A program made the translations under genes and the position numbers. The notes under the pieces are model-generated. The model ran no database searches. It was not told the origin of the DNA and worked only from the letters and a program-made list of their open reading frames with translations. Positions 3,601 to 13,087 of a stretch of DNA of 32,270 nt are shown here, piece after piece (positions within the stretch are counted from its first letter, which is position 1; the number at the start of each line of letters is the position of its first letter). The DNA is from Pseudomonadota bacterium (GTDB taxonomy: Bacteria; Pseudomonadota; Gammaproteobacteria; Xanthomonadales; Rhodanobacteraceae): the NCBI GenBank assembly GCA_018241365.1, contig JAFEDX010000009.1:1-32270 (forward strand), written 5' to 3'.

Positions 3601-6410
3601 GCCTCGTCCGGCCCGGCGCTGTCGCGTGCGGTGACATAGGCCACCAGGCGCTGGTCACCCGGGCGGTCTTCACGCACGATGACGATTGCACGCGCGACGC
3701 CCGGAGCTTCGAGGAGGTTGGCTTCGATTTCCCCGGGTTCGATGCGGTACCCACGCAATTTGACCTGAAAATCGAGGCGCCCGAGATGCTCGATCCAGCC
3801 GCACGCGGTCCAGCGGCCACGGTCGCCGGTGCGATAGCGCTTGGCGCCGGCACGTTCCGTGTCTGGATCCGGCAGGAAGCGCTCGGCATCCAGTTCCGGG
3901 CGACGCAGGTAACCGAGCGCCACGCCGTCGCCGCCGATGTAAAGCTCGCCCGGTACACCCAATGGACACTGCAAGCCTTGCGCATCGAGCACGCGCACGC
4001 TGCTGTTGGCCACCGGACGGCCTATGTAGATGCCTGCACGCGGATCCGTGACGCGCCAGAAGGTGGAATAAACGGTCGCTTCGGTCGGCCCGTAACCATT
4101 CCAGACCTCGCCGCAGCGCTCGAGCAGCGCTTCTGCCAGATCGACGGTCAACGGTTCGCCGCCCGCCACGGCGCGGAAACCGGAATGTCCACGCCATCCC
4201 GAATCGAGCAGGATCCGCCAGCCCGACGGCGTCGCCTGCAACATGGTCGCTTCGCTGCGTTCGATCAACCCGCGCAGGGCCGCGCCGTCGCGCACCTCGT
4301 CGCGCCCGGCGATCACGATTTCTGCGCCCACGCAAAGCGGCAGCATCAATTCCATGAACGCGATGTCGAACGACAGCGTGGTGACCGCGACCAGCCGATC
4401 ATCCGCGTGCATGCCGGGTTCGCGCTGCAGCGATGTCAGCAGGTTCGATGCTGCCCGATGCGGAACGAGCACGCCCTTGGGCTTGCCGGTCGAGCCGGAG
4501 GTGAAAATCACGTATGCAATATCGTTCGCCGGATCGGTGCCCGGATCGCGTGTTGGACGTGCAGTGGGAGCCTTCGCCAGTTCCTCCGAATCGCGCGCCA
4601 GCGAGAGCGTGCGCTCTATGGGATAGGCGATGTCCGAGGGGGCCGAGTCGGAGACGACCAGTGCGGCAAGTTGCGCGTCGGCCACCATGAACGTCAGCCG
4701 CTCCGCGGGAAACGCGGGGTCCAGCGGTACATAGCCAGCGCCTGCCTTGAGGGTGCCGAGCACCGCCGCGAGCATGTCCGCATTGCGTTCGAGGCAGATG
4801 CCAACCAAGGCGCCGCGGCTTACCCCACGCGCGCGCAGGGCGTGCGCAATGCGATTGGCGCGCGCCTCGAGCTCGGCGTAACTCCAGCGCACCTGTGCGT
4901 CGCGTACCGCCGCGTTCTGCGGCGTGCGGTCGACCTGGCGCTCGAAGTACTCATGTGCGAGGCGACCGGCCTCGTACTGCGTTCGTGCAGGCTGCAACGC
5001 GTCCAACCGCGCCGCTTCCGCTGCGGAGAGCAGCGGAAAGCGGCCGACCGTCAGCGCTGCATCGTCGACAATGCCGCGCAGCAAGGTGACGAAGGCATCC
5101 AGCCAAGCTTCGATGGTGCCGCTGTCGTACAGTCCGCTGTTGAACTGGCATTCCAGCGCCAGGCCGCCATCGCCGTGTTGGACGGCGTTGATGAACAGTT
5201 CGAAATTCTCGAAGCTGCGTGGTACGGAGGCGAACTCGAACTGCAAGTCGCCGAAATCAGCCTGCTGCGGGCCGAACGCACGATCGAGATTGAACAACAC
5301 GTTGACCAGCGGCATCCGGGATGGGTCGCGCGGCATCGCGAGCCGCGTCAACAGGGTGCCGAAGGTATAGCGCTGGTGCTCGAACGCATCGAGAAGCTGG
5401 CCACGCACGTCCGCGAGGAACTGCCGGAACGGCAACGTATCCGTGACCGACATTCGCACCGGCAGGATGTTGACCGCGTGACCAACCATCTGCTCGTGGC
5501 CTCCGGCCTGGCCGGCCGCCGGTACGCCGATCACCAGGTCGTCCTGACCAGAGAACCTGTGCAGCAGTGCGGCAAATGCGGCCAGCAGGAGGGCGTACAA
5601 GCTGGCGCCGTGGCGTGCGGCGCATTGCGTGACGGCGCGTACGCCCGTGGAATCCAGATGCAGGTCACGTCGCTGCGAGGCAAAGCTGCGCAGGCGCGGA
5701 CGCGGATGATCGGTGGGCAGATCCAGCGGCGCAGGCAAGGCCGCATACCGTGACAGCCAGTAACGTTCGGCCGCGCGAAAGTCGTCTGAATGCGCGTATC
5801 CAGCTCCGGCTACGGCGAAATCGGCGAACGAATCCGCCGGGGCAGGGTCCAGCGCGGAATGCGAGTGCACGGCGCGATAGGCTTCGCCCAAATCGTGCAC
5901 GATCACCCCCCAGGACCAGCCGTCGCAGACGATGTGGTGGGCGCTGAGCAGAAGCAGATGTCGATCGGCACCAAGCTTCAGCAGTTCCGCGCGCAACAGG
6001 GGGCCACGTTCGAGATCGAACGGCGCCTCCACCGCCACGCGTTCTGCCGTCGCGATTTCCTCCGCACGGTCCGTCGACGACAATGCGGACAGGTCGCGTT
6101 CGCGCCAAGGCAGTTCAGCGCGTTCGGCGATGCACATTTCGGCGCCATCGGTCCCGAGCGTCGCGCGCAGCGCATCGTGGCGCATGACCACAGCATCGAG
6201 CGCGGCGTGCAGGGCAACGGCATCGAGCACACCGGACAGTTTCAGGCTGACTGCTTCGTTGTAGGCCAGCGAGGCCTCAGGCGCCAGCTTGGCAGCCAGC
6301 CAGATTTCCCGTTGCGATTCAGTCGCCGGTACCACGCGGGAGAGCGCAGGCTGGGCGAATGGATCGAACTCGTTGGTTGCTGCAGTGGTATGTGGCTCCC
6401 CCCCACTCAT
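612..6410 (-). CDS. Nonribosomal peptide synthetase, C-A-PCP-C-PCP-TE
   Basis: 1932 residues. First condensation domain ~25-460 with HHIVCDG at 158-164. Adenylation domain ~485-985 with TSGSTGKPKG at 637-646, NGYGPTE at 771-777 and NGKTDR at 967-972. First carrier domain with LGGHSL, pantetheine serine S1025. Second condensation domain ~1080-1515 with HHIIWDG. A Pro/Gln-rich linker ~1520-1570 leads to a second carrier domain (LGGDSL, S1606). A type I thioesterase ~1670-1930 carries GGSMGG (S1752), D1779 and H1906. Aligning the pocket against GrsA by eye gives DIMQVGGVYK; the first four letters recall glycine-type codes, but I cannot assign a substrate. The second module has no adenylation domain, so PCP2 must be loaded by this A domain or in trans. 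The start ATG overlaps the stop of the upstream NRPS-PKS gene (ATGA), so the two are translated together. The thioesterase marks this as the last assembly-line protein, releasing product by hydrolysis or cyclisation. Confidence 0.95.
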   Translation of the reverse strand: MSGGEPHTTAATNEFDPFAQPALSRVVPATESQREIWLAAKLAPEASLAYNEAVSLKLSGVLDAVALHAALDAVVMRHDALRATLGTDGAEMCIAERAELPWRERDLSALSSTDRAEEIATAERVAVEAPFDLERGPLLRAELLKLGADRHLLLLSAHHIVCDGWSWGVIVHDLGEAYRAVHSHSALDPAPADSFADFAVAGAGYAHSDDFRAAERYWLSRYAALPAPLDLPTDHPRPRLRSFASQRRDLHLDSTGVRAVTQCAARHGASLYALLLAAFAALLHRFSGQDDLVIGVPAAGQAGGHEQMVGHAVNILPVRMSVTDTLPFRQFLADVRGQLLDAFEHQRYTFGTLLTRLAMPRDPSRMPLVNVLFNLDRAFGPQQADFGDLQFEFASVPRSFENFELFINAVQHGDGGLALECQFNSGLYDSGTIEAWLDAFVTLLRGIVDDAALTVGRFPLLSAAEAARLDALQPARTQYEAGRLAHEYFERQVDRTPQNAAVRDAQVRWSYAELEARANRIAHALRARGVSRGALVGICLERNADMLAAVLGTLKAGAGYVPLDPAFPAERLTFMVADAQLAALVVSDSAPSDIAYPIERTLSLARDSEELAKAPTARPTRDPGTDPANDIAYVIFTSGSTGKPKGVLVPHRAASNLLTSLQREPGMHADDRLVAVTTLSFDIAFMELMLPLCVGAEIVIAGRDEVRDGAALRGLIERSEATMLQATPSGWRILLDSGWRGHSGFRAVAGGEPLTVDLAEALLERCGEVWNGYGPTEATVYSTFWRVTDPRAGIYIGRPVANSSVRVLDAQGLQCPLGVPGELYIGGDGVALGYLRRPELDAERFLPDPDTERAGAKRYRTGDRGRWTACGWIEHLGRLDFQVKLRGYRIEPGEIEANLLEAPGVARAIVIVREDRPGDQRLVAYVTARDSAGPDEASLRAWLHGRLPEYMIPQHFVVLDAIPLLPNGKTDRKGLPAPQAHLASGREHVAPRDEREVRVAEAMEQALALPGIGIHDDFFALGGHSLLAAQLTARLNRDFGVTLSLRTLFDTPTVAGLAAAIGEQSAKGDASAPERIVHRADQTRAQASLMQQRLWFLEEMNPGRVAYNTPSAHRLRGRLDESAFERAFATMVERQAVLRTALRREGDKVMQIVEPAVAVKLFPAEDLSGLPEQVRESELMRRLQVLTDIPFDLTRAPLFRAHMFKLGEDDHAFFFMPHHIIWDGWSFDLMYADLATSYRAIKEGRPAGLPELPVSYGDFAEWHWRWLEGPQLQSQLAFWRERLKRSGEPKNLPTDRPRRPGMSGVGRTEWIKVSRETTEAMREAARAADATLNMGLLALYYVLLYGTTGQRDLVVGTPVRGRNQVELESVMGYFTNLVPLHLAMDPALPFVDFLREVKRMVVDSFGNPDVPLEYLQRELRARYGGSVPLYQALFSFQDARQRITDWGGLAHEQILLFQSGATEDLGLWFLENAKGMIGGVTYNADILDADTVRLQRARYLELLARVIEDPHQSIAALAQEMRNPQPDRQDTPAAATVPAQPGQPAGDAVGTAPPPTPDTERDDMPSSPAAQTIGALERALMEIWCEVLQVGRIGIHDDFFDLGGDSLLAVRMFQMAQKLTGVNLPLATLLTAPTIARQAAAFRAAGAKEPENAESAIFVDESVRDPWAPLVPIQPHGSRPPLFCIHAVGGNVLNYVPIAKALGEEQPFYGIQAIGLNGLTPPLDSLAEMATRYLTEIRTVQPHGPYFLAGGSMGGMIAYEVARQLRSQGERIGLLAMFDTYGPSNRQLEVSNRWERRLARAHGLDLQGKLGMLTHALAWRLRRVGDIARLRWLRHRRKMIPHDLRYREIERVHERAYLSYAAAPSDIAVTLFRASESCDGISTSRALGWEETVSGKIEVVEVTGGHHNLIEQPKLVENLRKVLARAQAAEGH

Positions 6411-13087: not shown

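What the first reader, a model, noticed from the sequence alone, without database searches (positions are those of the whole stretch)
6407..13087. Threonine-initiated PKS module with built-in aminotransferase: predicted beta,gamma-diamino acid unit
Seen: A-PCP-KS-AT-ACP-aminotransferase in one protein, no upstream C domain, no KR/DH/ER, intact catalytic residues throughout, pocket DFWNIGMVHK, AT motif HAFH. Known: that pocket is the Thr code, HAFH marks malonyl-type AT domains, and the MycA/ItuA aminotransferase acts on a carrier-bound beta-keto thioester. Inference: Thr plus malonate gives 4-amino-5-hydroxy-3-oxohexanoyl-ACP, transaminated to a 3,4-diamino-5-hydroxyhexanoyl unit. Known aminotransferase-PKS systems I recall start from fatty acids; an amino acid starter giving a vicinal diamine is not one I recognise.
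Basis: partly seen in the sequence, partly recalled or inferred. Interest (0 to 1): 0.78.

Follow-up and report, generated by a model that had tools for sequence, protein, structure and literature searches.

The report
Threonine-primed diamino-acid assembly line
A bacterial enzyme assembly line appears to start from threonine, add two carbons and then an amino group, giving an unusual building block with two neighbouring amines; relatives of it, mostly starting from valine, are common, and no product for them was found in the literature searched.

Summary
Window 6407-13087 (-) encodes an intact 2226-aa A-PCP-KS-AT-ACP-aminotransferase with pocket DFWNIGMVHK and AT motif HAFH. It has no C domain in front and no KR/DH/ER. 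It overlaps by 4 nt a C-A-PCP-C-PCP-TE synthetase. This is inferred; nothing was assayed.

It is not a one-off. Of 80 related loci, 68 have the same domain order in one frame. Of 69 starter pockets read, 59 are Val-type, 5 Thr, 3 Pro and 2 other. The Thr label needs at least four changes on the tree, and the A domain looks replaced on a conserved chassis. The domain order was already tabulated in print in 2013 (PMC3870968). So this is a Thr variant of a widespread, uncharacterised family.

Two points go beyond the finding. These lines recur in polysaccharide loci (46 of 69 loci, 0 of 40 control regions). The last module has usually lost its A domain while keeping C and PCP.

The parts
6407..13087 (-). 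P0001, hybrid NRPS-PKS-aminotransferase, 2226 aa
11534..13000 (-). Adenylation domain, pocket DFWNIGMVHK (Thr code)
   Evidence: Pfam; pocket by alignment
11258..11449 (-). Peptidyl carrier domain (GGHSL)
9734..11191 (-). Ketosynthase with Cys-His-His motifs
8816..9631 (-). Acyltransferase, GHSIG and HAFH (malonyl type)
   Evidence: meaning of the motif recalled
8192..8467 (-). Acyl carrier domain (LGLDSL); limits approximate
6548..7921 (-). Class III aminotransferase domain, PLP lysine in SYGKVIGGG
612..6410 (-). P0002, C-A-PCP-C-PCP-TE synthetase, 1932 aa, overlaps P0001 by 4 nt
3504..4946 (-). P0002 adenylation domain, pocket DIMQVGGVYK (substrate unassigned, Gly-like pattern)
1821..3185 (-). 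Second condensation domain (HHIIWD) of a terminal module without an A domain; limits approximate
648..1373 (-). Thioesterase domain (GGSMGG)
   Evidence: motif read
2..559 (-). Glycosyltransferase family 2, cut by the contig end
13219..14265 (-). JmjC/cupin-8 type oxygenase, HFD...H visible; likely tailoring
   Evidence: a JmjC-type hit in 37 of 80 related loci
14214..15092 (+). TIGR04325 methyltransferase-family protein, possible cluster member
   Evidence: similar hit in 18 of 80 loci

Best explanation
P0001 is an initiation-plus-extension module primed by an amino acid. Its A domain activates threonine and loads the PCP. The KS condenses the threonyl thioester with malonyl loaded by the AT, giving 4-amino-5-hydroxy-3-oxohexanoyl-ACP. 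The C-terminal aminotransferase converts the beta-ketone to an amine, giving 3,4-diamino-5-hydroxyhexanoyl-ACP. The first C domain of P0002 joins this to the amino acid chosen by its A domain (Gly-like pocket, not assigned). The last C-PCP adds a residue loaded in trans or passes the chain on, and the TE releases it. Shown: the genes, domains, motifs and conservation. Inferred: each substrate, the order of steps and the product.
For: Domain order and motifs. Thr pocket; DFWNIGMVHK is given for Thr in passages of PMC12283262 and PMC3547906. HAFH in 73 of 73 aligned ATs and the PLP lysine in 82 of 82 aminotransferases. MycA aminotransferase is the nearest solved relative. 68 of 80 related loci have the same order in one frame and 75 of 80 have a C-A-PCP-C protein. 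Starter pockets read as amino-acid codes: 59 Val, 5 Thr, 3 Pro, 2 other of 69. A second subfamily starts from Pro-type pockets and goes on to a Gly-type A domain. Against the nearest Val relatives the window's A pocket region is 37-41% identical while KS, AT and AmT are 70-78%; against four other Thr starters the pocket region is 66-70%. Purifying selection on both genes.
Against: No activity or product is known. Pocket codes mispredict, and PMC12283262 notes that DFWNIGMVHK-like codes also serve modified Thr or Ser. A free 4-amino-3-oxo thioester could close to a tetramic acid before transamination. A domains of one specificity resemble each other anyway, so the identity pattern does not by itself prove a swap. 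The downstream NRPS lacks an A domain for its last PCP, so the full product cannot be read.
Confidence: 0.65

Rival explanations
1. The 4-amino-3-oxo intermediate cyclises to a tetramic acid, or the diamino chain closes to a 4-aminopyrrolidinone, so the unit is a ring and not an open diamine in the final product.
For: The gamma-amine sits in position to attack the thioester (chemical reasoning).
Against: The next protein in nearly all relatives begins with a C domain with HHxxxD intact, which would take a linear donor; the chemistry is not tested.
Confidence: 0.12
2. The A domain loads a different or modified amino acid (N-methyl-Thr, hydroxy-Thr or Ser), with otherwise the same pathway.
For: A JmjC/cupin oxygenase lies next door; PMC12283262 reports codes of this kind for modified Thr and Ser.
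Against: The pocket is identical in five of the 69 starter pockets read (window included), plus G024 and Spirosoma; the other four named-locus Thr starters show no JmjC neighbour.
Confidence: 0.12
3. The aminotransferase acts on something else (a free keto acid, or another carrier), and P0001 delivers an unreduced beta-keto chain.
For: The domain family also holds free-standing glutamate-semialdehyde aminomutases.
Against: Its nearest solved relative by far is the carrier-acting MycA domain (443.7 bits against 186.5 for the next distinct enzyme), and it stays fused behind the ACP across relatives.
Confidence: 0.08

Closest known systems
MycA / ItuA PKS-aminotransferase module (mycosubtilin, iturin)
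   Same: KS-AT-ACP-AmT without reduction, class III PLP domain of the same subfamily, handed to an NRPS C domain; mechanism of MycA from passages of PMC3870968
   Different: MycA extends a fatty acyl starter (recalled); here an amino-acid A-PCP starts, so the beta-amine lies next to an alpha-derived amine
A-CP-KS-AT-CP-PLP1 proteins of Pedobacter heparinus (C6XWU5) and Thiorhodococcus drewsii (G2E5C9), PMC3870968 Table 2
   Same: Same domain order; the Pedobacter cluster was predicted as Nrp-Mal-Gly-Pk
   Different: No product or vicinal-diamine reading in the passages seen; their sequences were not compared here
Val-starter relatives in Dyella, Luteibacter, Rhodanobacter, Dokdonella, Lysobacter, Variovorax and others
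   Same: Same chassis and same next protein
   Different: Val-type pocket in 59 of 69; most have about 200 extra N-terminal residues that the window protein lacks (three looked at)
Syringomycin SyrE terminal module (recalled)
   Same: C-PCP-TE without its own A domain
   Different: No trans-loading pair was identified in the window's genome; G024 has an A-PCP-TE nearby that the own genome lacks

Membership tests
MycA-type PKS-embedded beta-aminotransferase module | Class III aminotransferase fused behind the ACP of a PKS module lacking reductive domains | tested here: met
MycA-type PKS-embedded beta-aminotransferase module | Nearest solved relative is the MycA aminotransferase; PLP lysine kept | tested here: met
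   (82 of 82)
MycA-type PKS-embedded beta-aminotransferase module | Fatty acyl starter as in iturin-class lipopeptides (recalled) | tested here: not met
   A domain with an amino-acid code, D235 and K517 present
MycA-type PKS-embedded beta-aminotransferase module | Transamination of a carrier-bound beta-keto thioester | not testable with these tools
   needs an assay
Amino-acid-primed A-PCP-KS-AT-ACP-AmT family | This domain order in one protein | tested here: met
Amino-acid-primed A-PCP-KS-AT-ACP-AmT family | Sequence kinship with the proteins of the 2013 table (C6XWU5, G2E5C9) | not tested
   those records were not fetched
Thr-activating A domain | Ten-residue pocket of the Thr type | tested here: met
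   codes in PMC12283262 and PMC3547906
Thr-activating A domain | Thr-dependent adenylation | not testable with these tools
   needs an assay
Statine-type amino-acid-plus-malonate units | Ketoreductase giving a beta-hydroxy-gamma-amino acid | tested here: not met
   no KR

The most novel reading that the evidence does not exclude
The diamino-acid peptide is not a free secondary metabolite but a cationic decoration of an exopolysaccharide or capsule. The line sits in polysaccharide loci in several lineages, a glycosyltransferase follows it directly in the window and in G024, most relatives have no TE on the synthetase, and the terminal C-PCP is kept although its A domain is dead or gone, as if the carrier-bound chain is handed to another acceptor such as a sugar amine.
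Probability: 0.15. Interest if true: 0.85.

Novelty: new variant of a known kind. Interest (0 to 1): 0.52.

Why it matters
If right, one widespread chassis makes beta,gamma-diamino acids from Val, Thr or Pro simply by exchange of the A domain. That would be a natural, swappable route to vicinal diamines, which are hard to make stereoselectively and bind metals well. The link with polysaccharide loci would, if causal, tie an NRPS-PKS product to a cell-surface polymer. The culturable Dyella, Luteibacter and Variovorax relatives make both points testable.

Tried and rejected
Flavin reductase and acyl-CoA-dehydrogenase-like monooxygenase (15134-16974): conserved in G024, but 0 of 80 related loci gave a hit to either, so not counted as part of the system.

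Copper link: the Spirosoma copy lies beside copper-resistance genes and a Variovorax plasmid copy about 8 kb from a TolC family protein and a copper oxidase. These are two records only, so it is kept as a note and not argued.

Searching pocket strings in papers for the second A domain gave no paper; its substrate stays unassigned. Searches for a vicinal-diamine product gave nothing that matched; only open-licence PMC papers are held, so absence there is weak.

Mistakes caught: two starter labels (L086, L088) were taken from another A domain of the locus and were corrected. In one search L099 was classed as a degenerate terminal A and was corrected to intact. L035 counts among 'no terminal A' only because its contig ends there.

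No structure prediction or fold search was run.

Full report
What is there. P0002 (612-6410, -) overlaps it by 4 nt and reads C-A-PCP-C-PCP-TE. Its A domain has the pocket DIMQVGGVYK. A family 2 glycosyltransferase follows, cut by the contig end, and a JmjC/cupin-8 protein precedes P0001 on the same strand; TIGR04325, flavin reductase, acyl-CoA-dehydrogenase-like and GNAT genes lie beyond. The window is the whole of contig C222 in a 3.2-Mb, 222-contig assembly.

It is a working-looking gene. The same-genus genome G024 is collinear over the cluster at 84-87% nucleotide identity over the main blocks. dN/dS is 0.12 for P0001 (2217 codons) and 0.16 for P0002 (1931 codons). G024 carries the same Thr pocket and the same P0002 pocket.

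How common it is. In 197 genomes of the same family, the ACP-aminotransferase part finds a match of at least 66% identity in 68 (hand count from the listing, own genome included). Within the genus only 2 of 16 genomes have it at that level, plus one at 53%. The remaining matches at 1e-40 or better are mostly ordinary stand-alone aminotransferases at about 35%. They include Dyella, Luteibacter, Rhodanobacter, Dokdonella, Frateuria, Lysobacter, Variovorax, Thiomonas and Lautropia, and assemblies labelled Myxococcales, Archangium and Planctomycetota. A locus labelled Bordetella parapertussis (L094) is a metagenome assembly whose label may be wrong.

Same machine, different starters. All 80 loci have an aminotransferase frame. 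68 have A-PCP-KS-AT-ACP-AmT in one frame (3 of these with a duplicated hit or an extra C). The other 12 are contig-end pieces or frames split by breaks. 75 have a C-A-PCP-C protein. Starter pockets could be read in 69 (68 loci and the window): 59 Val-type, 5 Thr, 3 Pro, 2 other; G024 adds a Thr. Code meanings rest on passages of PMC12283262 (DALWIGGTFK listed with the Val codes, DFWNIGMVHK Thr, DILQLGMIWK Gly) and PMC3547906 (DFWNIGMVHK Thr, DALFIGGTFK Val). The Pro reading of DVQF-type codes is recalled. A more distant subfamily in the same bacterial family (aminotransferase about 49-56% identical) starts from Pro-type pockets in 7 of the 8 lines put on the tree, and the next A domain is of the Gly type in the six of those eight with the higher identity. 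A Spirosoma plasmid carries a stand-alone Thr-starter copy with no synthetase beside it.

How the Thr starter came about. On a quick tree of KS-to-aminotransferase (SH-aLRT only, no bootstrap), the Thr label needs at least four changes among 6 rows, and five among 7 when Spirosoma, a long and oddly composed row, is added. Such counts cannot tell gains from losses. The window pair sits among Val starters. Against those nearest Val relatives its A pocket region is 37-41% identical while KS, AT and aminotransferase are 70-78%. Against four Thr starters from distant bacteria the pocket region is 66-70%, against Spirosoma 53%. Replacement of the A domain on a constant chassis is the simplest reading, though A domains of equal specificity resemble each other anyway.

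Mechanism. Thr loading, one malonyl extension and transamination of the beta-ketone follow from the domains, by analogy with MycA. MycA uses Gln as donor and acts on the ACP-bound beta-keto thioester (passage of PMC3870968), and its aminotransferase is the nearest solved relative. The product of this module would be 3,4-diamino-5-hydroxyhexanoyl-ACP, passed to the first C domain of P0002. Everything after the domain calls is inference.

The terminal module. In 76 P2-type proteins (window included) the last module has an intact A domain in 17, a degenerate one in 21 and none in 38, one of these only because its contig ends. The C domain motif HHxxxD is kept in 75 and the PCP motif in 73. A TE was detected in the synthetase next to P0001 only in L078, L079, L094 and the window among the loci, with a window-derived query; G024's is almost identical to the window's. 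So the last C-PCP seems still used although it cannot load itself. G024 has a nearby A-PCP-TE with pocket DILQLGMVWK. It was not found in the window's own assembly, where contig C215 continues the cluster without it.

Polysaccharide context. Dyella- and Luteibacter-type loci are flanked on both sides by a sugar transferase (23 loci), an O-antigen-ligase-like protein (25), a GT2 (24) and a polysaccharide deacetylase (15). Of 69 loci of at least 21 kb, 46 have at least one such marker (44 without counting glycosyltransferases) against 0 of 40 control stretches of 20 kb from 20 genomes of the window's family. Two cautions apply: the markers were taken from the test loci themselves, and many loci are close kin. 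A neutral check scanned 136 flank genes (of 189 listed; I left out seven loci and two genes, partly to spread lineages and partly for the size limit) from 20 loci: sugar transferase 6, Wzz 4, GT2 4, polysaccharide export 3, flippase 2, deacetylase 2. Of 135 control genes (of 473), none of these is among the 25 families listed, so each has at most 2. Variovorax L093 has a Wza-type exporter gene with homologues in L091 and L097. In G024 the stretch past the cluster holds glycosyltransferases, a flippase, a polysaccharide deacetylase, an epimerase and a sulfotransferase. 23 of the 69 loci show no marker, among them all Lautropia loci and nearly all Variovorax ones by this test.

Novelty. The domain order is in print: Table 2 of PMC3870968 (section read in full) lists A-CP-KS-AT-CP-PLP1 for Pedobacter heparinus and, extended, Thiorhodococcus drewsii. 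The words vicinal and starter do not occur in that paper's main text. Ten paper searches gave no product for this family; the library holds open-licence PMC papers only. I file it as a new variant of a known kind: the Thr-started form of a broad, uncharacterised amino-acid-primed PKS-aminotransferase family.

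Noticed in passing
L021-L100 flanks; G024 stretch L161; window 2-559: The assembly line recurs in polysaccharide-biosynthesis loci in several lineages (46 of 69 loci with a marker, 0 of 40 controls).
   Followed up: partly
window 1491-3185; P2 proteins of L021-L100: The terminal module has an intact A domain in only 17 of 76, while the C and PCP motifs are kept in 75 and 73.
   Followed up: partly
own contig C215 (L106) and G024 (L102): C215 appears to continue the cluster about 180 bases past the window's left end by comparison with G024, with a sulfotransferase, a TPP enzyme and an A-PCP-TE; another A-PCP-TE of G024 is missing.
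   Followed up: partly
L103, L108-L114: A second subfamily in the same bacterial family uses Pro-type starters before KS-AT-ACP-aminotransferase.
   Followed up: partly
L120 (Spirosoma linguale plasmid pSLIN02) 8724-15545: A stand-alone Thr-starter copy without a following synthetase lies beside copper-resistance genes.
   Followed up: no
window 15134-16974: A flavin reductase and an HsaA-like monooxygenase pair is conserved in G024 but had no hit in 80 related loci.
   Followed up: no
L056, L034, L071 N-termini: Relatives carry about 200 residues before the A domain that look by eye like a C-domain remnant; the window protein lacks them.
   Followed up: no
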